DNA of 64,000 bases, from assembly GCF_016864195.1 (NCBI RefSeq), contig NZ_CP045202.1, positions 1,891,001 through 1,955,000 on the forward strand, given 5' to 3'. The DNA comes from Dechloromonas sp. TW-R-39-2. Its GTDB lineage: Bacteria; Pseudomonadota; Gammaproteobacteria; Burkholderiales; Rhodocyclaceae. Positions within the stretch are counted from its first letter, which is position 1. Every line of letters starts with the position of its first letter. Shown here piece after piece: positions 14,575 to 56,146 of the stretch. The notes under the pieces are model-generated. The model saw nothing but the letters and a program-made list of their open reading frames with translations, did not search any database and was not told the DNA's origin. Made by a program: the position numbers and the translations under genes.

Positions 14575-14659
14575 GCCCAAGTGGCGAAATTGGTAGACGC
14601 ACCAGATTTAGGTTCTGGCGCCGAAAGGTGTGGGGGTTCGAGTCCCTTCTTGGGCACCA
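14575..14659 (+). tRNA. tRNA-Leu (anticodon UAG)
   Basis: The acceptor stem GCCCAAG pairs with the 3' end before an encoded CCA. The anticodon arm CCAGA-TTTAGGT-TCTGG gives UAG, and a long variable arm follows, as in class II tRNAs. The last 16 bases are the prophage attachment core, and the gene is left intact by the insertion. Confidence 0.95.
14644..14659 (+). repeat. attL core
   Basis: CCCTTCTTGGGCACCA, the 3' end of tRNA-Leu, repeated exactly at attR. Confidence 0.9.
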
Positions 14660-14767
14660 AATAATGTTACTCCGTTAGTCGATGACAACAAAACCCGCGT
14701 CAATACGTGGGTTTTGTTTTTTGTGCGTTACGAATTTTGCTCATTTATCGATAGTTTTATACACTGC

Positions 14768-14788
14768 ACTCCCCATTTTTTACGCACG
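14768..14788 (+). repeat. 21-bp direct repeat near attL (possible integrase arm site)
   Basis: It contains CCCCATTTTTTACGCACG and recurs perfectly at 56074-56094 in the same orientation, 57 bp before attR. Integrases of this kind bind arm sites on both sides of the core. It ends 9 bp before the integrase start. Confidence 0.6.
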
Positions 14789-14797
14789 GGATTACGC

Positions 14798-15796
14798 ATG
14801 GCATCGATCAAGCCGCACAAGGATGGTTACCGCGCGCAGGTGTATGTTCAAGGCGTTCGTGATTCTGCTGTGTTCCGGACGAAGCGTGAGGCTTCGGCCT
14901 GGGCGGCAGCCCGTGAGGTGGAACTCCGGAGTGATGCAAAAAAATCTCCCGCCCAGAAGCTCACGTTGCTGGACATGATGAAGCGATACTCCGAGGAGGT
15001 GTCTCCCGGAAAAGAGAGCGGTGTTCGGGAGCAAAAACGGCTAAAGGCGATGGAGGATCTTTTGCCGGTGGATACTTTGCTGGTCGACATAGGGCCAGAG
15101 CATTTTGCTCAATGGAGGAATGTTCGGCTTAAAACAGTCAAGCCGGCAACGGTAATTCGTGAGTTCAAATTGGTGTCGGCGATGTTTGAGGTCGCTCGAA
15201 AAGAGTGGCGATGGATTTCTGTAAATCCAGTTTCAGACGTTGCCAGGCCGCCACCGCCACCGAATAGAGAGCGAGTTATTTCGTTAAGTGAGATCAGGGC
15301 TATGCTTCGTGCGCTTCATTACCGGCGCGGCCCTGTGCGAAGCGTTTCTCATGCTGTTGCCTGCACTATGCTTTTGGCGCTCCGAACTGGCGCAAGAGCA
15401 GGTGAACTATGCGGATTGACGTGGGATATGGTTTCTGCCGACTACATCACCGTTGGCGACAAGCCCGGCGGCAGAAAAACCGGCATTAGAAAGGTGGCGA
15501 TGACGCGCCAGGCGATGCGCGTCATCGAGCAACTCAAGGGCTATGACCCGCTTTTTGTGGTAGGTCTTAAATCATCTACGCTTGATGCGAACTTCAGAAA
15601 GTACAGAGACAGAGTTGGGCTTTCTGGGTTCACATTCCATGACACTCGGCATACTGCGGCGACATGGATTGCTCAGAAAATTGATGTTCTTGATCTATGC
15701 AAGATGTTCGGGTGGTCAAACCCGAAGATGGCGATGGTTTACTACAACCCAACCGCGTCCGATATTGCTAAGCGGTTGGGTCGTAGGGCAGGGTAG
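14798..15796 (+). CDS. int: Phage tyrosine integrase
   Basis: 332 aa from ATG 14798. The catalytic residues are Arg200 (RTGARAGEL), His281 and Arg284 (HDTRHTAATW), and Tyr315 or Tyr316 (MAMVYYNP). The usual LGHS motif is replaced by FGWSN. The N-terminus looks like a short arm-binding domain (IKPHKDGYRAQVYV). It recombines the tRNA-Leu core. It does not look like an integron IntI: it is of phage type, and I see no IntI-specific extra helix between the second catalytic motifs. Confidence 0.92.
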   Translation: MASIKPHKDGYRAQVYVQGVRDSAVFRTKREASAWAAAREVELRSDAKKSPAQKLTLLDMMKRYSEEVSPGKESGVREQKRLKAMEDLLPVDTLLVDIGPEHFAQWRNVRLKTVKPATVIREFKLVSAMFEVARKEWRWISVNPVSDVARPPPPPNRERVISLSEIRAMLRALHYRRGPVRSVSHAVACTMLLALRTGARAGELCGLTWDMVSADYITVGDKPGGRKTGIRKVAMTRQAMRVIEQLKGYDPLFVVGLKSSTLDANFRKYRDRVGLSGFTFHDTRHTAATWIAQKIDVLDLCKMFGWSNPKMAMVYYNPTASDIAKRLGRRAG

Positions 15797-15804
15797 CCTG
15801 ATTT

Positions 15805-15841
15805 GATATACACCTTTTTAGGTGTCTATAAGGCGTTGGGC
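15805..15841 (+). repeat. Left junction of the cassette array (GTTGGGC core after a hairpin)
   Basis: GTTGGGC at 15835-15841 is a complete integron core site. Its left flank is a simple hairpin (ACACCT-TTTT-AGGTGT), not a full attC, so it resembles an insertion point (attI-like) or a degenerate site. The hairpin may also terminate the integrase transcript and the leftward operon. Confidence 0.6.
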
Positions 15842-16125
15842 GTCAAAATCAGCGCTGGACCATCGGGGTATGTGCTCACGAGATCGCCGCTCTTGTTGCG
15901 GAATGCCGATATTCCGGTCGGAATCGGTTTCTTCGGTGCAGCAACAAACCACGGGCGTCCGCGCAAAATGCACTCGGTGTCATCAACTCGCTGCATTTCT
16001 TCCTGCACCCGTTTTCGGTACTCATCGGGCAGATTGTTCAGTTCCTGCCAGTTGTGCTCCTGTCCGCAGCCATCACAGCCACGCTCGCCATTGCCAAGGC
16101 AGAAATAGGTTTTGCTTTTGTCCAT
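15826..16125 (-). CDS. Cassette A: hypothetical protein (99 aa)
   Basis: Starts MDKSKTYFCLGNGERGCDGCG; the three cysteines may bind a metal. It contains a charged helix (PDEYRKRVQEEMQRVDD). The C-terminal LTPNAL is encoded by the array's left junction, so the gene runs through the core site. AGGAC precedes the start. Not recognised; probably expressed from the phage leftward operon. Confidence 0.7.
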   Translation of the reverse strand: MDKSKTYFCLGNGERGCDGCGQEHNWQELNNLPDEYRKRVQEEMQRVDDTECILRGRPWFVAAPKKPIPTGISAFRNKSGDLVSTYPDGPALILTPNAL

Positions 16126-16150
16126 TTCATTAGTCCTTTCCGGGCGTCAC

Positions 16151-16211
16151 GCCCAACTATTCAATCAACCGGACAGCCCTGACGGGCTTCCGGTTATCTC
16201 AGGCGTTCGGC
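16151..16211 (+). repeat. attC-like site 1
   Basis: GCCCAAC at 16151-16157 and GTTCGGC at 16205-16211 flank the inner arms ATCAACCGGACAGCCC and GGGCTTCCGGTTAT. The left arm has the extra C residues. The inner part is almost identical to site 2. Confidence 0.85.
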
Positions 16212-16483
16212 GTCAATGCAGCCCTCGCCCGTTCTGCTCGTTTTCGGTATTCGTGTGTCGCGCTCCGGATGGCTCGCCAGTATTCGGACACGTCCGATTC
16301 GGCTTGCTCCAACTCAACCAGCGCGGCCGCGCATGCCTCAATGTCAGTTTCATCAACGACCTCGCCACGCTCAATTGCCGCGTGATGTCGGTTCATCGCT
16401 TTCAGCATGTTGTCGCAGCAGGTCGCAAGGTGGTCAGCATCAAACAACGCGCCATGCACAAGCCGTTTCTGTTCATCGGTCAT
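16199..16483 (-). CDS. Cassette B: hypothetical protein (94 aa)
   Basis: Begins MTDEQKRLVHGALFDADHLA at 16483, seven bases after GGAGA; an upstream ATG at 16525 lies inside attC site 2. The protein is helical and acidic. It ends ALTPNA inside attC site 1. No known function; resembles small phage early proteins in size and composition. Confidence 0.7.
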   Translation of the reverse strand: MTDEQKRLVHGALFDADHLATCCDNMLKAMNRHHAAIERGEVVDETDIEACAAALVELEQAESDVSEYWRAIRSATHEYRKRAERARAALTPNA

Positions 16484-16507
16484 TGCTTCTCTCCTTCGTA
16501 AATTGCC

Positions 16508-16568
16508 GCCGAACCCATCAATCAACCGGACAGCCCTGACGGGCTTCCGGTTATCTCAGGCGTTGGGC
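16508..16568 (+). repeat. attC-like site 2
   Basis: GCCGAAC at 16508-16514 is the complement of the site 1 right core; GTTGGGC lies at 16562-16568. The inner palindrome is nearly the same as in site 1, so the two cassettes share a recent attC ancestor. Confidence 0.85.
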
Positions 16569-16738
16569 GTCTTGTTCATTGCTGCGGTCAACATGTCATC
16601 CAGCTCTTTTTTGTCGGCGGCTATCCCGTCTTCAATGCGCTGCGCCTCGGCAATCTTTCCGGCCGCTTCGTCGCGCAATTTCTTCGCCAGTTGCGCGCGC
16701 TCGTTCCACGAAAGCGGCCTCGGGTCATAGAGCGCCAT
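16556..16738 (-). CDS. Cassette C, second ORF: hypothetical protein (60 aa)
   Basis: Begins MALYDPRPLSWNERAQLAKK at 16738, a long charged helix, and ends NKTPNA inside attC site 2. Its ATG overlaps the stop of the ORF before it (TAATG), so translation is coupled. A two-gene cassette is less common than a single-gene one. Confidence 0.7.
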   Translation of the reverse strand: MALYDPRPLSWNERAQLAKKLRDEAAGKIAEAQRIEDGIAADKKELDDMLTAAMNKTPNA

Positions 16739-16980
16739 TACTGCACCGCTTCCTGTTTCCATTTGCCAGCAAATTGCGGCTTCGCAATAAACGCCGCAGT
16801 GCCTTCAAGGCGAGCCACCGCGTCATCTTGTCCAACGGTGGCGCACATCATCACGCCAGCCACACTGCACAACTTCATCAGGGCATTGCCGGCGTCTTCA
16901 ACGGTGTCCAATCCACAGGCGTTCAGGTAGTCCTGCACGTGCTTCTGTGCCAGCTTCTCGGCTTCTTGTTGCGTAACCAT
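16738..16980 (-). CDS. Cassette C, first ORF: hypothetical protein (80 aa)
   Basis: Begins MVTQQEAEKLAQKHVQDYLN after an AGGAA site. Helical, with two cysteines in LCSVAGVMMCATVG. Not recognised. The only partner gene in the same cassette starts at its stop codon. Confidence 0.7.
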   Translation of the reverse strand: MVTQQEAEKLAQKHVQDYLNACGLDTVEDAGNALMKLCSVAGVMMCATVGQDDAVARLEGTAAFIAKPQFAGKWKQEAVQ

Positions 16981-17005
16981 TTCAGTTCCTTTCTGGGCGT
17001 CAACC

Positions 17006-17073
17006 GCCCAACATTTCAGTCAACGCTGACCTTCGCGGCTACGCCGCTCGGCCCGTTACTGCCAGCGTTATGC
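17006..17073 (+). repeat. attC-like site 3
   Basis: GCCCAAC 17006-17012 complements the site 2 right core; GTTATGC 17067-17073. The inner left arm CAGTCAACG has one C more than its partner CGTTACTG, giving plus polarity. Confidence 0.85.
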
Positions 17074-17277
17074 GCCAAGCAAGCGCTCCCTGTTCGCGGA
17101 CCGCAGCAGGTCCATGGCCTCCATGATCTTTCGGCAGGCGTACTGCGCCGGAGCCGCCTCGGCCTCTTCTTCCTCGTCCTCGAAATCGTCAATGTCGCTA
17201 TCGGAAGTTGCCTCCAGCGCGTCGAATGCTTGCTGCAACAGGAGCAACGGCTTGGCGTTGTTGGTGTCGGTGTTCAT
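17068..17277 (-). CDS. Cassette D: acidic hypothetical protein (69 aa)
   Basis: Begins MNTDTNNAKPLLLLQQAFDA after GGAAG. The middle is strongly acidic (DSDIDDFEDEEEEAEAA). The TAA stop is inside the GTTATGC core of site 3. Acidic small phage proteins often act as DNA mimics or inhibitors; that possibility is only an inference here. Confidence 0.7.
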   Translation of the reverse strand: MNTDTNNAKPLLLLQQAFDALEATSDSDIDDFEDEEEEAEAAPAQYACRKIMEAMDLLRSANRERLLGA

Positions 17278-17298
17278 GTTCTTCCTTTCAAAAATGCC

Positions 17299-17358
17299 GC
17301 ATAACACGGCGGTCAAGCGGAGCGCCCTGACGGTCGCCCGCTTACCTCAGCGTTAGCC
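17299..17358 (+). repeat. attC-like site 4
   Basis: GCATAAC 17299-17305 complements the site 3 right core; GTTAGCC 17352-17358. Inner arms GGTCAAGCGG and CCGCTTACC are the classic integron form, with the extra C on the left. Confidence 0.9.
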
Positions 17359-17706
17359 CCCGTCATGCCCGCCACGTTGCAAACACGTAACGGTTACGCC
17401 GTCCGGCGCTTCGATCACCAGCGAAGGCTGGAAGCCGTTGCGGTAGTCCTGCGCCTCAATGCGCATCGGCCAGCGCGGAAAATCGGTGTCGGCAAAATCC
17501 GGGTCCCAATTCGCCACCCCAATCATCCAGCTTCCGCTTTTGCCGGGGCAGTGCTGCCCAGTCACAACTACGCCCATGCCACTTTCCCTGTGCGCAACAA
17601 GGTATTCAATTGGCTCCCCGCTGGCACAGTTGTCGTAGTCGTCTTTCGTGTGCGCTATCTCGCCAAAGGTGTCGTCGCTATAGCCTTCAAATCGCAGTAT
17701 TGGCAT
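17353..17706 (-). CDS. Cassette E: hypothetical protein (117 aa)
   Basis: Begins MPILRFEGYSDDTFGEIAHT after GGAGA. Mixed alpha/beta composition, with two cysteines and GSWMIGVANWDPD in the middle. The TAA stop lies in the site 4 right core. I recognise no family. Confidence 0.75.
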   Translation of the reverse strand: MPILRFEGYSDDTFGEIAHTKDDYDNCASGEPIEYLVAHRESGMGVVVTGQHCPGKSGSWMIGVANWDPDFADTDFPRWPMRIEAQDYRNGFQPSLVIEAPDGVTVTCLQRGGHDGG

Positions 17707-17729
17707 TTCGTTTTCTCCGTTAAAAATCG

Positions 17730-17792
17730 GGCTAACCCGTCGCTCCAGGCGACACGCCGCAAGCGGCGTCCGCCTGATCTAGTGCGTTATGC
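17730..17792 (+). repeat. attC-like site 5
   Basis: GGCTAAC 17730-17736 complements the site 4 right core; GTTATGC 17786-17792. The long central stem is ACGCCGC-AA-GCGGCGT. It is read through as the C-terminal codons of cassette F. Confidence 0.85.
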
Positions 17793-18490
17793 GCCTTCAT
17801 CGCCAAGCGCATCAGTTCGTCCCTAAACTCAATCGGCGTGGCGTTCGCCTCTCTCTTGCCGAGGGTCGGCTTGTTCGCCTCTCTCTTGCCGAGGGTCGGC
17901 TTGTTTGCCTCTCTCTTGCCGAGGGTCGGCTTGTTTGCCGCCTTCCCCCGCTGGTCGTGAAACCCTATCTGGTGCGTGCCTTCTGGCCGCTCCCATCGCA
18001 ATTCAAAAGGCGGGTTCGTGCCGTGGTAGTACAGCCATGTCGCCTTGTTCGCTCTGTGGCCGTAGGCGCTTTGCCAAACCTCGCATACCCATCCGCCATC
18101 GATGGTGCGCTGCCATCCAGTCGCCGCCGGTCGCGCCAGGCCATGCGTCGCCCATGCCTTCGTCTTCGCCGGGTGTTCGAGCACCCCGCCAAACCGCCGC
18201 ACGCTTTTCAAGGCGGCGGCAAAGCATCCGCCGTCATTCCCTGGTCGGTTGTGCTCGCCGCCCCAACGGGCGTAGTTCACCACCGCCATTGCTCCCCACA
18301 GTTGGCACGGCGGGTGCGCTACCACTGGCAGCGGGCCATTGTAGCGCCGTGCGTCTCGGTGCTCCGGCCAGGCATCCACGTCGGGCAGGGCCGCATAGCA
18401 TCCGTCCGGCTGCACAAACAGCGCGGCCAGGCGCATAACATTGCGGTCAAGCGGACGTGCCGCCGTCGTCGCTTCGCTCCTAGTCGTCAC
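17732..18490 (-). CDS. Cassette F: large cassette protein, resembles a phage methyltransferase-like family
   Basis: 252 aa if it starts at GTG 18490, which follows a GGAGG supplied by attC site 6; ATG 18436 inside the site 6 core is the alternative. VVAHPPCQLWG near residue 60 resembles the catalytic PPC motif of cytosine methyltransferases, but no SAM motif is evident, so function is open. Near the end are three copies of ANKPTLGKRE. The last residues (HNALDQADAACGVSPGATG) are encoded by attC site 5. Confidence 0.7.
   Translation of the reverse strand: MTTRSEATTAARPLDRNVMRLAALFVQPDGCYAALPDVDAWPEHRDARRYNGPLPVVAHPPCQLWGAMAVVNYARWGGEHNRPGNDGGCFAAALKSVRRFGGVLEHPAKTKAWATHGLARPAATGWQRTIDGGWVCEVWQSAYGHRANKATWLYYHGTNPPFELRWERPEGTHQIGFHDQRGKAANKPTLGKREANKPTLGKREANKPTLGKREANATPIEFRDELMRLAMKAHNALDQADAACGVSPGATG
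17847..17937 (+). repeat. Three tandem 30-bp repeats in cassette F
   Basis: In-frame repeats that encode ANKPTLGKRE three times, nearly identical at DNA level. The copy number may vary by slippage. Confidence 0.85.
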
Positions 18491-18513
18491 TCCGCTTACC
18501 TCCAGCGTTATAC
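18433..18513 (+). repeat. attC-like site 6
   Basis: GCATAAC 18433-18439 complements the site 5 right core; GTTATAC 18507-18513. GGTCAAGCGGACG opens the left arm and CCGCTTACC the right arm. At 81 bp it is the longest of the set. Confidence 0.88.
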
Positions 18514-18774
18514 ATTCGGGTCAAAATTGCACCCGTACAGCACAACCGTTTGCCGCCCGGCTTCAGTGCCGTCCGCGTTCTCTTTAATCCCGCCATCGTC
18601 ATCGGCGGCAGGAATCCAGCGCGGCCCACTCACGCCAGAGATCGGCAGCATGGTGCAGCCGTCGCTTTCCCGTTGGTCATGGAACGACTCCTTGTCAATC
18701 ACAATGGGCTTCCGTCCGTGGCCTGACTCAATCAAGCCAGTCAGCATTTTGTGCAGCTTATTTACCGTCACCAT
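18508..18774 (-). CDS. Cassette G: hypothetical protein (88 aa)
   Basis: Begins MVTVNKLHKMLTGLIESGHG at 18774, because GGAGG at 18781-18785 is well placed for this ATG and not for the upstream one. IVIDKESFHDQRE and VVLYGCNFDPNV suggest an alpha/beta fold. The TAA stop is in the GTTATAC core of site 6. Not recognised. Confidence 0.75.
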   Translation of the reverse strand: MVTVNKLHKMLTGLIESGHGRKPIVIDKESFHDQRESDGCTMLPISGVSGPRWIPAADDDGGIKENADGTEAGRQTVVLYGCNFDPNV

Positions 18775-18786
18775 TTCAACCTCCAT

Positions 18787-18855
18787 GTATAACTGTGCCG
18801 TCAACTCGGACGGCTTCAAGCTTCGCTTTCGCCGCCCGTTACGGCGGCGTTATGC
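18787..18855 (+). repeat. attC-like site 7
   Basis: GTATAAC 18787-18793 complements the site 6 right core; GTTATGC 18849-18855. Confidence 0.85.
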
Positions 18856-19109
18856 ACCTTGCGCCAGTCGCGGAACTCCAGCGTCCAATCTGCCGATTCT
18901 TCAGGCTCGGACCATTCTGGGCGTTTGCTGCTGTGGTAGGTTTGGCGCCAGACGGCGACGGTTTCCCCGATCCAAAGCAGCGTCAGCTTCGTTTCGTTCC
19001 AGTAGCTTCCGGACTCTTCGCGACCAATGATTGTGTCTCCAACTTCAATGCCAAGCGCCCGGCATTGGTCGGCAACCTCGCCACTATCACTTTCAATCAG
19101 TTCAATCAT
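18816..19109 (-). CDS. Cassette H: phage-type hypothetical protein (97 aa)
   Basis: Begins MIELIESDSGEVADQCRALG after GGAG. TLLWIGETVAVWRQTYHS followed by WSEPEESADWTLEFRDWR has the look of small proteins found in many phage early regions. The last 12 residues are encoded in attC site 7. It is the rightmost cassette, next to the DGR module. Confidence 0.75.
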   Translation of the reverse strand: MIELIESDSGEVADQCRALGIEVGDTIIGREESGSYWNETKLTLLWIGETVAVWRQTYHSSKRPEWSEPEESADWTLEFRDWRKVHNAAVTGGESEA

Positions 19110-19122
19110 GGTTTCTCCTGTT

Positions 19123-19183
19123 GCATAACTGTGCCTTCAACGGCGACCGCCCGTACGGGCGTCGCGTTAAGGCGGCGGTCGAC
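19123..19183 (+). repeat. attC-like site 8 (right end of array, degenerate right core)
   Basis: GCATAAC 19123-19129 complements the site 7 right core and CTTCAACGGCGACCGCCC/GGGCGTCGCGTTAAGG form the inner arms. The expected GTT core reads GGTCGAC (19177-19183), so this end may no longer be active. Confidence 0.75.
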
Positions 19184-19213
19184 GCCAGCGGCACGACCAG
19201 ATTGAATATTCGC

Positions 19214-19588
19214 TCAGTCATGGTGGCCTTGGCCTCCATGAAGCGGGCGAGAAGTGGACTTTCGCCACCCATTTGCCTGCTTTCCGATGCTGGTGCTTTT
19301 TTCGATGGCTTGGGCGTAAGCGCTCGGTGGAATGAGCCGTTTGTCCATCGCCAGACGAATCAGAAGCTCAGCAACCTGCAGCCGCTCCAGCAATTCCATC
19401 AGGTGCGGCTCTTTGTTTTTCGCCACATTGGCGCGAAACACGAGTACCGTGATTTCGATGCACTCGATAGAGATTTTTTCTCCGATCGTGCGCTTGTAGT
19501 CACGGTTCATGTTCTTGACCATGTCAGCCGACAGGCCAAGAAGATCGTAAGCCGCTTTGTAGATCGCCAGGGTAGTGTGGGTGGCCAT
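19214..19588 (-). CDS. avd: Avd-like four-helix-bundle accessory protein of a diversity-generating retroelement
   Basis: 124 aa. LAIYKAAYDLLGLSADMVKN, YKRTIGEKISIECIEI, FRANVAKNKEPHLMELLERL and AEKL-type helices ending in IGKQANGWRKS follow the pattern of Avd proteins, which form a positively charged barrel that binds the DGR reverse transcriptase and template RNA. It lies directly downstream of a gene with a variable repeat, its usual place. No reverse transcriptase follows: attC site 8 starts 31 bp after its stop. Confidence 0.75.
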   Translation of the reverse strand: MATHTTLAIYKAAYDLLGLSADMVKNMNRDYKRTIGEKISIECIEITVLVFRANVAKNKEPHLMELLERLQVAELLIRLAMDKRLIPPSAYAQAIEKSTSIGKQANGWRKSTSRPLHGGQGHHD

Positions 19589-19605
19589 GCTGATAAATGA
19601 CTTAA

Positions 19606-20082
19606 TTACTCAATGATCAATCTGCGGACGGCACGAGCGCGGAGATCGTGGCTCTTGTGGACGCCGCTCTGGTCGCCGTTGTAGAAGCCCTGAGACCAAG
19701 CCCAGCCGGACTCATGGGCTTCGCACGACCAGTAGGCGTGGTCCTCGAATTGATCCTTGAGGTTGGCGTAGAGCAGGGCTTGTTCGCGGCGCGTGGGCAG
19801 GCCTGCAGAAGCATCAAGGCTGCCGCGCTGCGCCGCCCATGCCATGGCCTTATCCCAGCTAATGTCATCAGCCTGCCCTGGGAGAAGCACAAGGTGGTAA
19901 CTCGGCTCGCCGTCCTTGCCGATGATCAGCCCTGCGTAGTGCTCGCCTGGGCGTAGTTCGATGGTTGTTTCCGGGAAGTAAAACTCGACGGCCTTGCTGC
20001 CGGCCTGCGCCTCAAAAGTCGCGATCTTGGATGCCAGCGCATCGGCATCGGCCTTGATCGATTCAAGCGTGATGGGGGTCAT
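19606..20082 (-). CDS. DGR variable protein 1 (DUF1566/C-type-lectin-like)
   Basis: 158 aa from ATG 20082 after AGGA. The C-terminal third has the conserved frame YWSCEAHESGWAWSQG and ends LRARAVRRLIIE, as in C-type-lectin-fold target proteins of DGRs. The middle (YHLVLLPGQADDISWDKAMAWA) aligns with the other two paralogues. No signal peptide, so it acts in the cell. Its 96-bp variable repeat lies at 19618-19713. Confidence 0.8.
   Translation of the reverse strand: MTPITLESIKADADALASKIATFEAQAGSKAVEFYFPETTIELRPGEHYAGLIIGKDGEPSYHLVLLPGQADDISWDKAMAWAAQRGSLDASAGLPTRREQALLYANLKDQFEDHAYWSCEAHESGWAWSQGFYNGDQSGVHKSHDLRARAVRRLIIE
19618..19713 (-). repeat. DGR variable repeat VR1
   Basis: Starts GAGTCCGGCTGGGCTTGG and ends CTCCGCGCTCGTGCCGTC... 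as in VR2 and VR3. The eight variable codons here are GGC, TAC, AAC, GAC, AGC, GGC, AGC and CAC. The GC-rich 3' end resembles an initiation-of-mutagenic-homology site. Confidence 0.8.
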
Positions 20083-20109
20083 TGCTAAGTCCTTTGAATG
20101 ACTGAATGA

Positions 20110-20469
20110 TTAAATGGGCAATCTGCGGACGGCACGAGCGCGGAGCTCGTTGGTCTTGTGGCCGTAGCCCTGGGGGCCGCGGCGGAAGCCCTGAAACCAA
20201 GCCCAGCCGGACTCGGTGTGGTGCGTCTCGTTGCTCCAGTACCAGTCTTTCTTGAACTGATCGCGATGGTTTGCCCAGAGCATGGCTTGCTCGATCCGGT
20301 TGGGCAGATCGCCGCCGATGCTCTTGGCCCATTCGAGCTGCGCTTCGAAGGTGGCATCATCGTTGTCGCCAGGCAGCAGAATGACGTGCTGCAGGTTGCC
20401 GGCTGCGTCGCCTATCGCGCCGACGTAGATTTCGCCTTCGGCAAGTTGTGGGAGTGTGATTTGTTGCAT
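20110..20469 (-). CDS. DGR variable protein 2
   Basis: 119 aa from ATG 20469 after AAGGAG. The same fold as its neighbour: AGNLQHVILLPGDNDDATFEAQ, then YWSNETHHTESGWAWFQG and the LRARAVRRLPI end. It looks like the minimal form of the family, lacking N-terminal additions. The variable repeat is at 20119-20214. Confidence 0.8.
   Translation of the reverse strand: MQQITLPQLAEGEIYVGAIGDAAGNLQHVILLPGDNDDATFEAQLEWAKSIGGDLPNRIEQAMLWANHRDQFKKDWYWSNETHHTESGWAWFQGFRRGPQGYGHKTNELRARAVRRLPI
20119..20214 (-). repeat. DGR variable repeat VR2
   Basis: Same 96-bp length as VR1 with no gaps. The variable codons are GGC, CGC, CGC, CCC, GGC, TAC, ACC and AAC; all keep the third-position C. Confidence 0.8.
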
Positions 20470-20490
20470 GGTTTCTCCTTGGTTGGTTTT

Positions 20491-20772
20491 CTATCGACGA
20501 GACTCGGCAATCGCCGAATCAATCTGTGTCATCGGGATGTTTCCGAGTGCGTTCAAACGGAATGTGCCGGCTTTGACCAGCCTGCCGATCGTCGGCTTGC
20601 TCTTGCCGAGAATGCGTGCGGCTTCGGCCTGGGTAACCGACTCTGGTCGGGCGACGTGCTGGCGGGGAAGCATGGCGCGGGCTTTTGCGACGGCGGCGTC
20701 GGCAGCGGCGTTGATCATGGCGGTGAGTTCGGCTTGCGTCATGATGACGACGGCTTCGGTGGTGGCGATCAT
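20491..20772 (-). CDS. Helix-turn-helix protein (93 aa)
   Basis: GGAGG precedes ATG 20772. VTQAEAARILGKSKPTIGRLVKAG is a clear MerR/excisionase-like helix-turn-helix near residues 45-70. It could be an excisionase or an early regulator. Its start overlaps the previous stop by ATGA. Confidence 0.7.
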   Translation of the reverse strand: MIATTEAVVIMTQAELTAMINAAADAAVAKARAMLPRQHVARPESVTQAEAARILGKSKPTIGRLVKAGTFRLNALGNIPMTQIDSAIAESRR

Positions 20773-21299
20773 GCTGCCTCCTGGTGTTGGGTGCTGGCCC
20801 TTGGCTGTTTTCCCGCAGCCTGCAGACTCCTTTCGGGGGATGCAGTTGGGGCCAGCTTGATCTGGTCAAATGCGGCGCTGATCTGGATTGTCTTGACGAT
20901 GTCGGTGGCTTCGTCAATCGTCAGCCGCAGCGCCTGGCGCTTGCAGGATTCGATGTCGGCATAGACGGTGGCGATGTCTTCCTCGAAGATCGGCGCGGCC
21001 AGGTCGAGTTTGTTGGCGAGTCGGACCATGCCGTCGACCTCGGCTTCAATGCCGTGTCGGGCTTCGGCCAGTTGATGAAACTGGATGACGCCGCGCAGGG
21101 CTGCGACGACTTCGTACCAGCCGCCGCGGCCATCTTCATGGAAGACTGGCCGACCTTGAGCGCAGTCAATCACGCCATCGGCCTGCATGCGGTGCAGCAC
21201 GCGTTCGATCGGTGCAAAAACGGATTGAACCTTCCATGGCTGAGCGGCAAGTTTCAGGCCGTTTGCTACATGGAAACGTCGTTTGCAGCGTTTTCTCAT
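20769..21299 (-). CDS. Phage hypothetical protein (176 aa)
   Basis: A basic N-terminus (MRKRCKRRFHVANGLKLAAQ) resembles a short DNA-binding segment. The rest is helical, with LPIER-type and EEDIATVYADIESCKRQA stretches. ATGA overlaps couple it to both neighbours. Not recognised. Confidence 0.7.
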   Translation of the reverse strand: MRKRCKRRFHVANGLKLAAQPWKVQSVFAPIERVLHRMQADGVIDCAQGRPVFHEDGRGGWYEVVAALRGVIQFHQLAEARHGIEAEVDGMVRLANKLDLAAPIFEEDIATVYADIESCKRQALRLTIDEATDIVKTIQISAAFDQIKLAPTASPERSLQAAGKQPRASTQHQEAA

Positions 21300-21613
21300 T
21301 GTTTATTAACCTCATAGGTATAGCCGGTAGATGGCTTTCCATGCCGAATTACCGCGCCATTGCCAATCAGCGTGAGTAGCGTTTTTTGAATAGGGTCGAC
21401 GGACAGGTTGAGGTCAAAAGCAATGGTGCGAACGGTGTTGTTTCCCCGTTCAATTGACTTAAAAATATCCTTGACCAACTGCTCTCTTGGGCGCTGGCGA
21501 GCGGGGTTAATCGATGGCCAGCGGTTATTGATACGATCCATGCTGTAGGTAGTGACCGTGCCTGCGAAATAGGGCGGTGGAGAGCGGAACAGGATGGCTG
21601 CAGTCAGGCTCAT
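21296..21613 (-). CDS. Winged-helix DNA-binding protein (105 aa)
   Basis: Starts MSLTAAILFRSPPPYFAG at 21613 after GGAGA. The C-terminal half (TVRTIAFDLNLSVDPIQKTLLTLIGNGAVIRHG) is a winged helix. Probably an early regulator of the phage. Confidence 0.65.
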   Translation of the reverse strand: MSLTAAILFRSPPPYFAGTVTTYSMDRINNRWPSINPARQRPREQLVKDIFKSIERGNNTVRTIAFDLNLSVDPIQKTLLTLIGNGAVIRHGKPSTGYTYEVNKQ

Positions 21614-21876
21614 GCTTTTCTCCCGAACTTGCGAACCATCCACGGATGAATCCACATCGAAACAAGAATTCCGCAGGGGCCGCCCAGGCAGTAGGCGGCG
21701 ATTTCAAGACCTTCGGTTGGGCCTGGCATGGTTTTCAGCACGATGATGTTCGATGCGCTGATGCCAAAGCTGGTGATTGCTGCCATCAGCTTGTGGCCGC
21801 CATTGACATTGAGCGACTGAAGGCCGAGAAACAGAACCAGCATGAATGTGGCTGCGAAGAGGGCGAGGGCGGTCAT
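21610..21876 (-). CDS. Small inner-membrane protein (88 aa)
   Basis: Three hydrophobic stretches (residues 3-22, 32-47 and 58-76) separated by short loops, with a basic C-terminus (RKFGRKA), suggest inner-membrane insertion. It overlaps the next gene by ATGA. Function unknown; early-operon membrane proteins can mediate superinfection exclusion, but nothing here shows it. Confidence 0.65.
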   Translation of the reverse strand: MTALALFAATFMLVLFLGLQSLNVNGGHKLMAAITSFGISASNIIVLKTMPGPTEGLEIAAYCLGGPCGILVSMWIHPWMVRKFGRKA

Positions 21877-22625
21877 TGGTTGAATCCGATTGCGGCTTCG
21901 ATTTGCCGATACAGGTCGGCAATCGTGCTGTCGTTGATGAGGATGGATTCGCAGTCAAGCGGGGCAATGCCTTGTTCGCTGGCGTGCTTGGCCGTGCTTT
22001 GGTTAAGGCACTTGCTCTGGCGCGTGATGTGCACCAGATCGCCGCGCTGTCGAATCCATTCGGCTTCGTTGGGAAAACGAATGTCAGTGATGACGATGCC
22101 TTTGAGGCCAAGGTATTTGGCGTTGGCGGTCAGGTGGGCGATGCGCTGGTCGGCCAGGCGTAGCCAAAGGTCGTCGGCCACGTGCTGACGGCCCCATTCG
22201 GTGCCGAGCGTTTGCATCAACTGGCGGGGAGATTTGCCTAGCCAGTAGATCGGCTGCTCTTTCTTGCTGCGGTCGACCAACTCAACCTCGGCCATATCGA
22301 ACATGGCCATGATGCCCTTGCGGATCGGGTCGGCAAGCGCGAACGAGGCAAAGCCGTAGGCGGCGCACAGGTGCAGGGCTGCGGTGTCTTTGCCGGCGCC
22401 GGCAGGGCCAGTGAGGCCGATGATCTTGAGGCGGTGGGTATCGGCCGCCATCGGGGCAACCGGCGCTTTCACGTCTGCCCCGATGGTTTTTTGACCGGCG
22501 CGGTCCTCGACAGGTGTTGCGGGTGCTGCTTGGGAGGTTGTCGATACCGCGCTGCCGGGGTTATTGGCCCCACTCCCGGCTAGGGTCTCACGCTTAATAT
22601 TCGTTTCGGTGTTTGGGTAGGTCAT
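21873..22625 (-). CDS. Deoxynucleoside monophosphate kinase-like protein
   Basis: 250 aa. Walker A GPAGAGKD at residues 73-80, then FALADPIRKG and TDIRFPNEAEWIR, as in phage T4 gp1-type dNMP kinases, which supply dNTPs for phage DNA synthesis. A disordered tail of about 60 residues precedes the domain and is unusual. ATG 22625 overlaps the previous stop (ATGA). Confidence 0.75.
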   Translation of the reverse strand: MTYPNTETNIKRETLAGSGANNPGSAVSTTSQAAPATPVEDRAGQKTIGADVKAPVAPMAADTHRLKIIGLTGPAGAGKDTAALHLCAAYGFASFALADPIRKGIMAMFDMAEVELVDRSKKEQPIYWLGKSPRQLMQTLGTEWGRQHVADDLWLRLADQRIAHLTANAKYLGLKGIVITDIRFPNEAEWIRQRGDLVHITRQSKCLNQSTAKHASEQGIAPLDCESILINDSTIADLYRQIEAAIGFNQ

Positions 22626-22798
22626 TTCGGGAGTGCCAGCGTTAAGGTCGATGAAACAGAAATCAGGCCAACGGAAAAAATCGCGTCAAGGCAGTCGTCA
22701 ATCGACAGTTCAGGATTGGTCTGGATGAGGCTTTCAATGACAGCGCTCAGGGCGTCTTCGTTGCTGACGCGGATGCCGTAGAGGCCGGCTTCGTTCAT
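22622..22798 (-). CDS. Phage hypothetical protein (58 aa)
   Basis: Starts MNEAGLYGIRVSNEDALSAV at 22798, overlapping the stop of the 18-codon ORF before it. Short helical protein with no known family. Confidence 0.65.
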   Translation of the reverse strand: MNEAGLYGIRVSNEDALSAVIESLIQTNPELSIDDCLDAIFSVGLISVSSTLTLALPK

Positions 22799-22851
22799 GA
22801 AGACACCACAAGAACGATGAATGCGATCAAGAGGAGGGCTTCGTTGCTCAT
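22795..22851 (-). CDS. 18-residue membrane micropeptide
   Basis: MSNEALLLIAFIVLVVSS is one predicted membrane helix. ATG 22851 follows GGAG, overlaps the upstream stop (ATGA), and its own stop overlaps the next ATG (ATGA). The unbroken chain of coupled starts is the evidence for translation. Confidence 0.6.
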   Translation of the reverse strand: MSNEALLLIAFIVLVVSS

Positions 22852-23117
22852 GCCGCACTCCAGCGGTTTTGTTTTGCTGTGGCCCGGCGCAGTTGGCGCA
22901 CCTGGTTGCGAGACTCAACTACCGCAAGCGACAGCTGCTTGATGCTGTTGGCCATCGATGCGCGGGTTTTGCTGTCGGCAACATCGGCCAGTGATTCGCA
23001 CTTGCCCTGCAGGCTGATCTCAAGGCTGCGCAGTTGATACAGGGCCATCAGATAGCGGGTGCGCTGGCTTACTGCGGTCAACGCGTTCCGCAAGGTGTTT
23101 TCGATGACGGATTTCAT
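22848..23117 (-). CDS. Phage hypothetical protein (89 aa)
   Basis: Helical and basic: TAVSQRTRYLMALYQLRSLE then SIKQLSLAVVESRNQVRQLRR. It looks like a coiled coil. ATGA overlaps at both ends. Confidence 0.7.
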   Translation of the reverse strand: MKSVIENTLRNALTAVSQRTRYLMALYQLRSLEISLQGKCESLADVADSKTRASMANSIKQLSLAVVESRNQVRQLRRATAKQNRWSAA

Positions 23118-23230
23118 GCTGCGGCCCTCGATGCCATTTCATGGAGTTCGGCCAGCACAAACCGGCGGGCCAGATCGGTGTTGGTATAGGCGCTGTGCAG
23201 CACGCGCTGGAGTTCGTAGTCGATGTTCAT
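23114..23230 (-). CDS. 38-residue phage peptide
   Basis: Starts MNIDYELQRVLHSAYTNTDL after AGGAG at 23230 and is ATGA-linked to both neighbours. Soluble and helical. Not recognised. Confidence 0.6.
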   Translation of the reverse strand: MNIDYELQRVLHSAYTNTDLARRFVLAELHEMASRAAA

Positions 23231-23793
23231 GCTGGCTCCTTGGGTTCGAGCTTTTCAGTCATGCGCTGAGTGATTGACATAACGACCGGGTCTGACTTCT
23301 TGCTTTCGAACTTGGCCATTAGGTCGGCTTCGAAGCTTTCAGCAGAAACTTTGCGGCGGACAATTTCGTAAGCAATGTGGCCGGATAGGTCGCTGCGCGA
23401 CTGGTCGTTCCAGTAGTTCAGTTCCCATGCCAGTGATTTTTTATCGTCAGATTCAGTACGAATGGCAGTGGTCAGCCGATCGAGGCGATTGATGTGCAGT
23501 GCATTGCCGGCCACTTTGTCGAGAATGCTTTCATTCGGCAGCTTGGCGACCAGGGCATTTGATTCGCGGCGCGCCTTCGTGATGTCGCGCTCGTATTGTT
23601 CTTCGGCCGCTTTTTTCTTCTTCGCTTCAACGCTTGTTTTTGCGGCAATACCATCAATGATCTGTGCGCAGGTCAGCATGACGCCGCGGTCGGCAATGGT
23701 CAGCGTGCTGTCGTTGGCCAGATCGCGAATGATGGTTGCTGCGCGTTTGGATGATGCCGATCGGCCTTTGAGGAACTTAGCGGTCGAAAACAT
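23227..23793 (-). CDS. Phage hypothetical protein (188 aa), coiled-coil
   Basis: GAGGGG precedes ATG 23793. Residues 55-90 are a highly charged helix (EAKKKKAAEEQYERDITKAR). The rest is helical. No family recognised; its place ahead of coupled small genes suggests a role in early DNA metabolism, which is inference. Confidence 0.7.
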   Translation of the reverse strand: MFSTAKFLKGRSASSKRAATIIRDLANDSTLTIADRGVMLTCAQIIDGIAAKTSVEAKKKKAAEEQYERDITKARRESNALVAKLPNESILDKVAGNALHINRLDRLTTAIRTESDDKKSLAWELNYWNDQSRSDLSGHIAYEIVRRKVSAESFEADLMAKFESKKSDPVVMSITQRMTEKLEPKEPA

Positions 23794-23811
23794 AACCCCT
23801 CCTGAATTTGC

Positions 23812-23863
23812 TGCCGGCCCGCTTGTCTATCGGTGGGGCCGGCTAAACCGTGTTGCTCGGTTT
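23812..23863 (-). other. Hairpin pair between genes, possible weak terminator
   Basis: GCCGGCCC (23813-23820) pairs with GGGCCGGC (23836-23843), and AAACCG pairs with CGGTTT (23845-23863). There is no clear T run. Confidence 0.4.
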
Positions 23864-23873
23864 AATTGATGAA

Positions 23874-24491
23874 TTACTGAATGGGTAATCTGCGGACGGC
23901 ACGAGCGCGGAGCTCGTCGTCCTTGTGGCCGTAGTACTGGGTGCCGTAGCCGAAGTGCTGAAACCAAGCCCAGCCGGACTCGGAGCGATGTGTCGTGTTT
24001 GACCAGTAGCCGGTCTTTTGAAAGGCTTCCGGAAGAGTTTCGTAAGCCATCAGCAGTTCTGCGCGTGTCGGCAAATCGCCGCCGATGCTTTTTGCCCAAG
24101 CCATCTGGGCAGACCATTTGGCGAAATCGTTGTCGCCCGACAGCAGAATGGTGTGATGGAGGTTGCCGGACAGGTCGCTAAATACGCCGAGGTAGCGCTC
24201 GCCTTCGGAAAGTTCAGGAATGCCGATATTCGACATAGCCGGCTTTGAGTTTGGTTCGGCGTTTGCAATCAGTGCATCAATATCTGCTTCGCTGCTGACC
24301 CGAATAACACGAGCGCCTTCGGGAGCATCGAACGAATCGGCATTGGTGATGTAAAGCGCGCTGATCTTGTGGTCGGTCTTGCCGTCCCAGTTGTCGGCGA
24401 TCATGCTGCAGCCGAGTGCTTCACAGAGGATTCCGCTTTTGCGTGTCTTACCAATTGCTTGCGGCCCGCTGAGAACAACGATATTTCCCAT
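23874..24491 (-). CDS. DGR variable protein 3, fused to an N-terminal P-loop segment
   Basis: 205 aa. The N-terminus has a Walker A (GPQAIGKT, residues 9-16) and about 70 more residues unlike the other two paralogues. From about residue 92 it aligns with them (LSEGERYLGVFSDLSGNLHH, then YWSNTTHRSESGWAWFQH and LRARAVRRLPIQ). Fusion of a P-loop part to a variable lectin-like domain suggests an intracellular recognition protein. Its variable repeat is at 23886-23981. Confidence 0.8.
   Translation of the reverse strand: MGNIVVLSGPQAIGKTRKSGILCEALGCSMIADNWDGKTDHKISALYITNADSFDAPEGARVIRVSSEADIDALIANAEPNSKPAMSNIGIPELSEGERYLGVFSDLSGNLHHTILLSGDNDFAKWSAQMAWAKSIGGDLPTRAELLMAYETLPEAFQKTGYWSNTTHRSESGWAWFQHFGYGTQYYGHKDDELRARAVRRLPIQ
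23886..23981 (-). repeat. DGR variable repeat VR3
   Basis: 96 bp aligned without gaps to VR1 and VR2. The variable codons are CAC, GGC, TAC, ACC, TAC, TAC, GAC and GAC. Confidence 0.8.
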
Positions 24492-24503
24492 GGCATCTAT
24501 CCC

Positions 24504-24677
24504 TTAAATCAAGACCGGCTGAACAGGTGCCGGCTTCCCTTTACTGCTGGCCTTCACGCCGCACTCAAGCGCGGTGCGGATAGCCGGTGTTTGCATCGCC
24601 TTCCCGAAGCTGACGCCCAAAAACGAAAGGCCGGTGCGCTGGTAAAAGGCTTTCAGCTTGGCTTCGTGGTGGGTCAT
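24504..24677 (-). CDS. First gene of the leftward early operon (57 aa)
   Basis: Starts MTHHEAKLKAFYQRTGLSFL at 24677; an in-frame ATG at 24716 lies inside the operators and is less likely. Basic and soluble. Function unknown. Confidence 0.6.
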   Translation of the reverse strand: MTHHEAKLKAFYQRTGLSFLGVSFGKAMQTPAIRTALECGVKASSKGKPAPVQPVLI

Positions 24678-24709
24678 GTCGCTGCTCTGGTTGATGCGAT
24701 AGCAGAACG

Positions 24710-24742
24710 ATAGCAAATGCTATATCAAATAGCAAATGCTAT
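24710..24742. promoter_or_regulatory. Leftward-operon operators (oL-like)
   Basis: Two copies of the palindrome ATAGCAAATGCTAT at 24710-24723 and 24729-24742, 19 bp apart, plus a half site ATAGCA at 24698. The same ATAGCA-NN-TGCTAT element occurs at 27551. Confidence 0.75.
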
Positions 24743-24884
24743 TTTTCAGGGCGCGATTTATGGGCAGCACCGGTTGGCGCCATGGCGTATATGACGAAAG
24801 TGAGGCGTTGAGTTATTCCGATAGCAAGCGCATCATCAAGAAACGATTGTCATAACTTCGATGAACAATTATTCCGGGGGAATC

Positions 24885-26039
24885 ATGATTGCTTTTAAGG
24901 AACGCTTGCTGGCGCATGCCAAGCATGTTGAAAGTGTTGGGGCGCACTGCAGTACAGAAGAGACTACAAAACAGGCGCTGATCCTGCCTTTGCTCGATAT
25001 TCTTGGTTTTAGTCCGTTTGATCCGACGCGAGTCAAGGCTGAGTACGGCGCTGACTTTCCAGGTGCGAAGAATAATGAGCGGGTCGATTACGCGCTTTTC
25101 TGTCACAACGTTCCGGTGATGTATATCGAGGCTAAGCCGTTTGGGGCAAACCTGACGAATCATTCGCCGCAGCTATCGCGTTATTTCAATGCGACGCCGG
25201 AAGTTGCAGTTGCAGCCATCACAAACGGCTCTGAGTGGCGGTTTTTCACTGATTTGAGCAACAAAAACATGATGGATGGCGCGCCATTCTTCAGTTTTTC
25301 GTTTGCTGACATTGATGATGCCGTGGCCAATCGTTTATACCGCTTCCGGCATGATGAATTTCAGCCGGATGCCTTGCGCACACTGGCTGAGGAAAGTGTC
25401 TATATCTCGGCGTTTCAGGAATTGATCAGCGCTGAGCTACGGCAGCCGAGCGCCGAGTTCGTGCGCTACATAGCTGGCCGTGCCAATGTGCAACGTCAAT
25501 TGAATGCCAAGTTTCTCGATAGCCTGACGCCGCTGATTAAGCAGGCTGTCGAGTTAGCGGTTTCTGCAATGGTTGTTTCCGGATTGTCGGCAAAGCCGGT
25601 TGCCCAGTTTGTGCAGCCAGAGGCTGCGCCGGTGATCCGCGAGGATGGCGATATTGTCGATCCTGAAAATGCCAAGATCGTTACAACGGCCGCTGAACGG
25701 CGTCTGCTGGAGGTGCTGCGCCAGATCGTTGGTCCTGAGGATGAGATCGTCGGCAAAGATACCGAAAGTTATTACGCTGCTCTGTATAACGGGAAGAGCA
25801 ACCGCTGGCTGGTTCGGTATTGGGGTGACAAGAAGGTGCCTGCCGTGCAGTGTTGTCTGCCGATGACAACGGAGCGCCGTAGTGATGTCATTCGTGCTGG
25901 CTTGAGCTTTTCAACGGGCGATACGATTAACCTCGGCGCTCCGGAGAACATTCTGCGCTTGGCGCCGCTCATCCTTGAGTGCTTGGGTTACTGCAAGAAT
26001 GATGACAATTTCAGGCGGGCAGGGCAGGCGGTCGACTGA
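24885..26039 (+). CDS. HsdR N-terminal-domain protein (PD-(D/E)XK nuclease-like)
   Basis: 384 aa from ATG 24885, which follows GGGGGAA; ATG 24861 is the longer choice. The nuclease motif is Asp68, then Glu82 and Lys84 in VMYIEAKP, as in the N-terminus of type I restriction subunit R. The helicase domains are absent, and the C-terminal half (residues 220-384) has a separate domain. It is transcribed opposite to the lysis-lysogeny genes around it. It may be a lysogen-expressed defence gene; that is inference. Confidence 0.7.
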   Translation: MIAFKERLLAHAKHVESVGAHCSTEETTKQALILPLLDILGFSPFDPTRVKAEYGADFPGAKNNERVDYALFCHNVPVMYIEAKPFGANLTNHSPQLSRYFNATPEVAVAAITNGSEWRFFTDLSNKNMMDGAPFFSFSFADIDDAVANRLYRFRHDEFQPDALRTLAEESVYISAFQELISAELRQPSAEFVRYIAGRANVQRQLNAKFLDSLTPLIKQAVELAVSAMVVSGLSAKPVAQFVQPEAAPVIREDGDIVDPENAKIVTTAAERRLLEVLRQIVGPEDEIVGKDTESYYAALYNGKSNRWLVRYWGDKKVPAVQCCLPMTTERRSDVIRAGLSFSTGDTINLGAPENILRLAPLILECLGYCKNDDNFRRAGQAVD

Positions 26040-56130: not shown

Positions 56131-56146
56131 CCCTTCTTGGGCACCA
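56131..56146 (+). repeat. attR core
   Basis: CCCTTCTTGGGCACCA, exact repeat of the tRNA-Leu 3' end. Confidence 0.9.

What the first reader, a model, noticed from the sequence alone, without database searches (positions are those of the whole stretch)
15835..19183. Integron cassette array (integrase-less) inside a prophage
Eight cassettes are bounded by attC-like sites with GTTRRRY-type right cores (15835, 16205, 16562, 17067, 17352, 17786, 18507, 18849; the last, at 19177, is degenerate). Every left core is the exact complement of the previous right core, over five different core sequences. That pattern arises only if each cassette has circularised and reinserted through its own core. The inner arms have the canonical extra C. 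No IntI is present, so mobility would need an integrase from the host or another element. I know of no well-described phage that carries such an array in its early operon.
Basis: partly seen in the sequence, partly recalled or inferred. Interest (0 to 1): 0.95.

Follow-up and report, generated by a model that had tools for sequence, protein, structure and literature searches.

The report
Phage integron array with reversed genes
A virus integrated in this bacterial chromosome carries eight swappable gene cassettes of the integron type; unlike in most bacterial arrays, their genes point backwards relative to the recombination sites, and the same reversed layout recurs in many other phage sequences, some with their own integron integrase.

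Summary
In detail: a 41.5-kb prophage carries eight attC-bounded cassettes (15835-19183); 8 of 8 left cores are the exact complement of the core at the front of the same cassette. An attC model built only from the host's own integron has six of the eight sites as its six best window hits, all on +. The window has no IntI; the host chromosome has one.

The same holds in viral contigs (123 reversed, 6 forward, 48 undecided of 177 clusters) but not in bacterial ones (6 reversed, 56 forward, 13 undecided, 1 tie of 76). Some viral contigs carry complete integrons: a separate IntI clade, a conserved attI with swapped first cassettes, and cassette genes on the intI strand. (2) The array stands where a diversity-generating retroelement's template and reverse transcriptase stand in relatives.

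Phage arrays without integrase are published (Qi 2023); I found no report of the reversal. Recombination and expression are inferred.

The parts
14644..14659 (+). attL core of the prophage, 3' end of tRNA-Leu (tRNA 14575-14659)
   Evidence: 16-nt direct repeat with 56131-56146; tRNA
56131..56146 (+). attR core of the prophage
14798..15796 (+). phage tyrosine integrase (not IntI)
   Evidence: phrog_1 integrase 190 bits; no IntI match in the window by tblastn
15835..15841 (+). front core of cassette 1, left border of the array
15835..16157 (-). cassette 1; gene 15826-16125 on -
16151..16211 (+). attC 1 (top strand +)
   Evidence: R1 18.1 bits; fold z -4.9
16205..16514 (-). cassette 2; gene 16199-16483 on -
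16508..16568 (+). attC 2 (top strand +)
   Evidence: R1 19.0 bits; fold z -3.8
16562..17012 (-). cassette 3 with two genes, 16556-16738 and 16738-16980, both on -
   Evidence: second gene phrog_3691
17006..17073 (+). attC 3 (top strand +)
   Evidence: R1 14.2 bits
17067..17305 (-). cassette 4; gene 17068-17277 on -
17299..17358 (+). attC 4 (top strand +)
   Evidence: R1 27.0 bits
17352..17736 (-). cassette 5; gene 17353-17706 on - (phrog_10666, weak: 23.4 bits)
17730..17792 (+). attC 5 (top strand +)
   Evidence: R1 17.0 bits
17786..18439 (-). cassette 6; gene on - (phrog_12600, 224 bits; called as 17732-18490, overlapping both neighbouring sites); homologous cassettes in L333-L337 and L342
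18433..18513 (+). attC 6 (top strand +)
   Evidence: R1 14.9 bits, 39.1 in the whole-genome search
18507..18793 (-). cassette 7; gene 18508-18774 on -
18787..18855 (+). attC 7 (top strand +), by cores and arms only
   Evidence: not hit by R1
18849..19129 (-). cassette 8; gene 18816-19109 on - (DUF7241)
19123..19183 (+). attC 8 with degenerate right core, right border of the array
   Evidence: not hit by R1
19184..19252 (-). remnant of the DGR RNA leader (RF03018, RT-15); the hit runs 19252-19122, below the gathering score, and agreement with relatives ends where the array begins
   Evidence: 69.9 bits, gathering 82; compared with relatives
19214..19588 (-). avd, accessory protein of a diversity-generating retroelement
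   Evidence: PF22296 48.8 bits, phrog_3206 6e-31
19606..20082 (-). candidate DGR variable protein 1 (variable region at its 3' end)
20110..20469 (-). candidate DGR variable protein 2
23874..24491 (-). candidate DGR variable protein 3

Best explanation
The region is an integrase-less integron cassette array (a CALIN) of a particular, phage-type kind. Each cassette is mobile: integron integrase excises it as a circle between G and TT of the flanking cores and reinserts it at another attC or attI. Its gene is encoded on the opposite strand to the attC top strand, so that eight cassettes (nine genes, seven of which start 13-26 nt from a core) form one leftward run with the phage's other - strand genes, presumably transcribed from a phage promoter rather than from an integron promoter. 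The same design occurs in complete form in other phages, where a distinct clade of IntI lies near the end of the operon and the cassette genes lie on the intI strand, mostly reading towards attI and intI. In this prophage intI and a recognisable phage attI are absent, and the array stands in the place of the template repeat and reverse transcriptase of a DGR. Shown: attC sites, core rule, reversal here and in relatives, phage IntI clade, attI with alternative first cassettes, homology breaks at the core, DGR remnant. Inferred: recombination in trans by the host IntI or by the IntI of a co-resident phage, expression from the phage operon, and the cause of the DGR loss.
For: Core rule 8 of 8. 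R1, from host sites only, puts 6 of 8 array sites first, all on +, while all array genes are on -. Viral contigs: own gene reversed at 146, forward at 7, undecided at 54 of 207 sites (phage-trained caller; 139, 8, 60 with the bacteria-trained one). Bacterial contigs, same DNA pattern: reversed 12, forward 70, undecided 33 of 115 (bacteria-trained; 16, 68, 31 with the phage-trained one). After clustering: 123 reversed, 6 forward, 48 undecided of 177 against 6, 56, 13 and 1 tie of 76. Independent of pattern and caller: in 80 viral loci fetched by homology to the cassette-6 gene, 26 attC hits (E<=0.3) in 8 loci, all 26 on the strand opposite to that gene. With intI: 70 attC hits in 34 of 80 loci, all on the strand opposite to intI as in ordinary integrons, 67 of them on the intI start side and 3 (L421) behind intI; own gene on the intI strand at 49, opposite at 6, undecided at 15 (43, 8, 19 with the other caller). 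Nine of nine phage IntI tested exceed the TIGR02249 cut-off. All 26 IntI rows labelled reversed lie in one 52-row clade of viral contigs (97/91; 99 SH-aLRT). Contigs with identical IntI carry different first cassettes behind an identical attI, differing from G^TT on.
Against: Not every phage array is reversed: in published phage TJE1 the two R1 sites lie on the strand of the annotated genes, 7 of 207 viral sites and 4 of 4 in L460 are forward. The strand of most cassette genes comes from a simple codon-based caller trained partly on the same loci; it is weak on the host array (7 F, 2 R, 1 undecided of 10 with one training set; 5, 4, 1 with the other). 46 of the 80 intI loci kept had no R1 hit, so their orientation is untested. 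Two of the eight window attC are not found by R1. The window itself has no intI and no phage attI motif, so its descent from a complete phage integron is inferred. Homology breaks near the core are not confined to attC-bearing loci: L343 ends at the core too, and L332 runs 52 nt past it. No recombination or expression was measured.
Confidence: 0.86

Rival explanations
1. The array is a piece of an ordinary bacterial integron (the host's or another's) that was picked up by the phage, as in the Vibrio phages of Qi et al. 2023; nothing about it is phage-specific.
For: The host has a full integron and a second attC cluster. One host attC resembles window sites 1 and 2 by eye.
Against: Cassette genes are reversed in the window but mostly forward in the host's two clusters and in bacterial contigs. 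Relatives of the cassette-6 gene turned up in 147 viral stretches, and one is the first cassette of a phage integron with its own IntI. I did not search bacterial genomes for the eight cassettes.
Confidence: 0.08
2. The reversal is an artefact of mis-assigned attC strand or of antisense ORF calls.
For: High-G+C DNA gives long antisense ORFs; the simple caller errs on the host array.
Against: The same model and caller give the opposite answer on bacterial contigs. The cassette-6 gene, whose strand is fixed by homology, lies opposite to 26 of 26 attC hits. Three of seven cassette proteins called on the reversed strand match PAPS reductase in Pfam above its cut-off (L435, L425, L337). In contigs with intI the attC strand agrees with that expected from intI in 70 of 70.
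Confidence: 0.04
3. Reversal is selected because it puts the recombinogenic attC bottom strand on the lagging-strand template and so raises cassette exchange, rather than because of operon transcription.
For: Bottom strands on the lagging template raise excision and integration (passages of PMC11023631 and PMC8946536).
Against: In the prophage state the opposite holds here: with dnaA at 0.37 Mb the fork would cross the window in + direction, so the bottom (-) strand is on the leading template (terminus assumed opposite to dnaA). Phage replication direction is unknown.
Confidence: 0.15
4. The sites are intergenic hairpins (weak terminators) of a phage operon, not recombination sites.
For: They lie at the gene boundaries between cassettes.
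Against: Core rule 8 of 8, host-derived attC model hits, homology breaks at the core in other contigs.
Confidence: 0.02

Closest known systems
CALINs in phage genomes (Qi et al. 2023, PMC9892861; parts 1-3 of 7 read, plus a term search of the main text)
   Same: attC-bounded cassettes without intI in phages; five of six sites shown there to recombine with attI1 in E. coli
   Different: 17 CALINs and a few integrons in 10,705 phage genomes. The term search of its main text finds no 'reverse' or 'opposite', and I saw nothing on genes reversed relative to attC or on a phage clade of IntI. TJE1 from that paper is forward here; P12002L gave no convincing R1 hit.
Sedentary chromosomal integrons of bacteria (the host's own, L009)
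   Same: attC architecture, core layout, IntI family TIGR02249
   Different: Their genes mostly run with the attC top strand, away from intI; the phage ones run against it, on the intI strand
Spirochaetota integrons with intI in reverse orientation (one passage of PMC9668308; details recalled)
   Same: intI and cassette genes on one strand
   Different: There, as I recall, intI is turned round; here intI keeps its place and the cassette genes are turned round relative to attC
Diversity-generating retroelement with avd (Bordetella phage type, likeness recalled)
   Same: avd, three variable genes, first part of the leader RNA
   Different: Template repeat and reverse transcriptase are missing; the array stands in their place

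Membership tests
CALIN (cluster of attC sites lacking integron integrase) | two or more attC sites close together | tested here: met
   six by host-derived model, eight by cores
CALIN (cluster of attC sites lacking integron integrase) | no intI beside the array | tested here: met
   tblastn of host IntI finds nothing in the window
CALIN (cluster of attC sites lacking integron integrase) | sites recombine with an IntI | not testable with these tools
   needs an attC x attI assay
Complete integron | intI gene next to the array | tested here: not met
   the only match over the cut-off in the genome is at C1:2550051
Complete integron | attI at the array start | tested here: inconclusive
   the left flank lacks the phage attI motif seen in L414, L417 and others; only a short partial likeness, judged by eye
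Phage integron with reversed cassettes (group described here) | cassette genes opposite to attC top strand | tested here: met
   reversed 7, undecided 1 of 8 sites by the caller; all nine genes on -
Phage integron with reversed cassettes (group described here) | IntI of the viral clade | tested here: not met
   no IntI in the window
Diversity-generating retroelement | Avd | tested here: met
Diversity-generating retroelement | reverse transcriptase | tested here: not met
   none in the whole genome with PF00078 (that this model catches DGR RTs was not checked), none in the window by tblastn with a related DGR RT
Diversity-generating retroelement | template repeat | tested here: not met
   the three variable regions match only each other in the window, apart from two chance-length hits of 13 and 17 nt

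The most novel reading that the evidence does not exclude
Phages own a separate integron system: a phage-specific clade of IntI with its own attI, and a pool of cassettes whose genes are turned round so that they are read with intI as one phage operon. Cassettes circulate between phages and are largely closed off from the bacterial cassette pool because each pool's genes are silent in the other's layout. Prophages such as this one hold integrase-less arrays of that pool that can be reshuffled in trans by a host or phage IntI.
Probability: 0.65. Interest if true: 0.92.

Novelty: new variant of a known kind. Interest (0 to 1): 0.85.

Why it matters
Integrons are known as a bacterial gene-capture system read from a promoter next to intI. 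A phage clade with reversed cassettes on the intI strand would mean that phages use the same recombination chemistry as a module of their own, for swapping small genes one at a time. It could explain part of the mosaicism of phage early regions, predicts where new cassettes enter (a definable attI), and makes testable whether phage and bacterial cassette pools are isolated by gene orientation. The window also shows the place of one diversification device (a DGR) taken by another.

Tried and rejected
Considered and rejected: host-integron capture, terminator hairpins and antisense artefact (see rivals). The lagging-strand idea as the reason for the reversal is not supported in the prophage state. 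Two hand-written attC scanners each found only 5 of 8 window sites; the second gave hits in 17 of 20 shuffled windows, so both were replaced by the covariance model. A first arm alignment was shifted by one base in half the rows and was redone. R1 misses long-looped sites: of the 10 host sites it was built from, (filters off) shows 3 over most of their length and 2 in part, all 10; site counts are therefore lower bounds. Rfam gave no attC hit; its RT-15 hit led to the DGR. A paper search for RT-15 found nothing. Isolate-phage searches gave little: no DNA match for 14660-26000, no match for the DUF7241 protein, 13 records with a distant relative of the cassette-6 protein, two of which I opened without testing them for attC. 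Folds of single sites were unequal (z from -4.9 to -0.5) and prove little.

Rows dropped or doubled: 9 of 151 hits (the weakest, and one cut off by a contig end), 1 of 64 (at a locus end), 1 of 26 (cut off) before the caller count, though the strand count 26 of 26 includes it. Of the 120 pattern loci 68 had a usable site; L021 and L040 were added. L093 and L021 hold the same site of the same contig, counted twice in the 207; L187/L447, L210/L459 and L337/L414 are the same contigs in two sets. In one search viral loci were called with the phage-trained and bacterial loci with the bacteria-trained model. L433, called differently by the two models, was left unlabelled in the trees. The second tree left out 26 distant rows of the first (25 viral, L223); its 29 added bacterial rows are among the best-scoring IntI of one class (144 of 369 genomes matched).
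Full report
1. The observation. The region 15835-19183 holds eight cassettes. Front cores and R'' cores were placed by script: 8 of 8 R'' are the exact reverse complement of the core at the front of the same cassette, five distinct core sequences occur, and re-pairing the same cores at random gives 8 of 8 in 0.0003 of permutations. This is the mark that excision and reinsertion between G and TT leave. A covariance model, R1, was built from the arms of ten attC sites of the host's own chromosomal integron. Over the 64-kb window, both strands, filters off, its six best of 11 hits are six of the eight sites, all on +. Sites 7 and 8 were missed. In the whole genome R1 finds the ten host sites, four window sites and four others.

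2. Setting. The prophage runs from 14644 to 56146, between a 16-bp repeat at the 3' end of tRNA-Leu and its copy. It has integrase, TerL of phrog_15, head protease/major head and primase. The window lies in one 3.46-Mb chromosome that also holds a true IntI (TIGR02249, 483.5 bits, cut-off 265) at C1:2550051-2550992 with an array beside it. tblastn with that IntI finds nothing in the window.

3. A retroelement displaced. The gene next to the array, 19214-19588, is the Avd protein of a diversity-generating retroelement. Three upstream genes share a variable 3' end. In 79 of 80 viral contigs with a related Avd the reverse transcriptase follows within 1.2 kb, and the 80th has no RT in the 681 bases left before its contig end; a motif of the template repeat was found behind avd in 57 of 80. 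In the window the sequence agrees with relatives through the leader RNA and then turns into the last attC. No reverse transcriptase is found in the whole genome with PF00078, none in the window with a related DGR RT, and no template repeat in the window. The array therefore stands in the place of template and RT. Whether it displaced them in one step cannot be told; the last right core is degenerate, and the junction does not show a clean target site.

4. The reversal. In canonical sites (layout recalled) and in the host's sites the left arm holds an extra base and the spacers are 7 and 7-8 nt. The window sites have this on + (read), as R1 confirms for six. All nine genes of the array are on -. 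So the genes are turned round relative to attC. In the host's other clusters they mostly are not: 3 of 3 forward in L506, read from the gene list, and in L009 7 forward, 2 reversed, 1 undecided with the bacteria-trained caller, 5, 4 and 1 with the phage-trained one.

5. Is that general? Viral contigs, with L021 and L040 added: 146 reversed, 7 forward, 54 undecided of 207 sites in 70 loci (phage-trained; 139, 8, 60 bacteria-trained). Bacterial contigs: 12 reversed, 70 forward, 33 undecided of 115 in 39 loci (bacteria-trained; 16, 68, 31 phage-trained). Clustered at 70% identity: 123 reversed, 6 forward, 48 undecided of 177 against 6, 56, 13 and 1 tie of 76; loci by majority: 55 reversed, 3 forward, 2 ties, 10 undecided of 70 against 1, 29, 2 and 7 of 39. 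Fisher's test on the unclustered sites gives p about 1e-38, which overstates independence. Genes flanking the arrays lie mostly on the cassette-gene strand in viral loci (323 against 104 on the attC top strand) and the other way in bacterial loci (36 against 71). A test that does not depend on pattern or caller: 80 viral loci fetched by homology to the cassette-6 gene hold 26 attC hits in 8 loci, all 26 on the strand opposite to that gene. A counter-example is phage TJE1, whose two sites lie on the strand of its annotated genes.

6. Complete phage integrons. 120 viral contigs encode relatives of IntI; 80 were kept. R1 finds 70 attC hits in 34 of them, 70 of 70 on the strand opposite to intI, as in ordinary integrons; 67 lie on the side where intI starts and 3, in L421, behind intI. 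The own gene is on the intI strand at 49, opposite at 6, undecided at 15 (phage-trained caller; 43, 8 and 19 with the other). The usual picture is phage genes, cassettes and intI on one strand, followed in the cases looked at by a phage integrase (L425, L420) or ParB (L417). Of 22 such contigs 9 have TerL of phrog_15 and 2 of phrog_2; of all 36 records tested 16 have one of the two. Many records are fragments, and the phrog_2 search also rings in 11 of 14 control genomes. Nine of nine phage IntI tested are above the TIGR02249 cut-off.

7. One clade. In a tree of 88 IntI (80 viral rows, 7 bacterial, the host) all 26 rows labelled reversed lie in a 52-row clade of viral contigs only (97/91). With 29 more bacterial IntI and 26 distant rows left out the clade stays free of all 36 bacterial and host rows (99 SH-aLRT). 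L431 and L469, called forward from one site each, lie inside; L460, forward at 4 of 4, lies outside with bacterial rows. The viral rows outside the clade have, apart from L459 and L460, no R1 site, so their orientation is unknown.

8. attI and swapped cassettes. Upstream of intI most of the 18 loci printed share a motif that ends at the GTT of the first core. An exact form occurs in 17 viral contigs; intI was found beside it in 15, and in 16 of 16 with a called gene the first gene is reversed. Among the 15 with 300 nt behind the site, 1 of 105 pairs of first cassettes is alike. Contigs with identical IntI carry different first cassettes behind the same attI: three kinds among five contigs in one group, two among three in another, and two among two in a third. 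The window's cassette 6 aligns to 24 of 25 loci tried; in L333-L337 and L342 the alignment ends within 3 nt of the core. L346 and L349, which also have attC, end before it; L343, without an R1 site, also ends at the core, and L332 runs 52 nt past it. In L337 this is the first cassette next to intI.

9. How it works, as I read it. The phage operon is read right to left in the window. Cassettes enter and leave by IntI at G^TT; because attC fixes the orientation of entry, only cassettes whose gene is turned round are read with the operon. In complete phage integrons this places cassettes and intI on one strand and probably one transcript. Here intI is absent and must be supplied by the host or another phage. 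Recombination, expression and the source of IntI are inferred.

10. What is known. Qi et al. 2023 (PMC9892861; parts 1-3 of 7 and a term search of the main text) describe phage CALINs and show that five of six sites recombine with attI1; I saw no statement on gene reversal there. Further searches of the held open-access library (listings, with passages read in PMC11551772, PMC9668308, PMC11023631 and PMC8946536) turned up no paper on it; most subscription papers and all bioRxiv preprints are outside that library. The role of the replication strand is from passages of PMC11023631 and PMC8946536.

11. Limits. The gene caller is simple and was trained partly on the same loci. The pattern favours one attC type. 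IMG/VR contigs are predictions and mostly fragments. The link of this array to the phage IntI clade rests on the shared cassette and the shared orientation, not on an intI in the window.

Noticed in passing
19184-24491: Remnant of a diversity-generating retroelement: avd, part of the RT-15 leader and three variable genes are left, template repeat and reverse transcriptase are missing.
   Followed up: yes
17843-17939: Three tandem copies of a 30-nt unit inside the cassette-6 gene; the homolog in L337 shows one copy, and most alignments to relatives break at this place.
   Followed up: no
L009:1136-1435 and 3963-4262: Two identical 300-nt stretches in the host's chromosomal integron, suggesting a recently duplicated cassette.
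   Followed up: no
L506:6578-9084 (G000:C1 about 1.705-1.708 Mb) and L507:8040-8112: Further attC sites in the host chromosome away from the integron; the three in L506 have forward genes, no IntI match in either stretch.
   Followed up: partly
L435:4859-5602, L425:3742-4479, L337:1847-2599: PAPS-reductase-like proteins recur as cassette genes in phage integrons (3 of 7 cassette proteins tested).
   Followed up: no
L040:14695-14755 and L021:4804-4860: Two relatives with an intact DGR also carry a single reversed attC site further down the same gene run.
   Followed up: partly
L421:7583-8624: Three reversed attC cassettes lie behind intI instead of in front of it.
   Followed up: no
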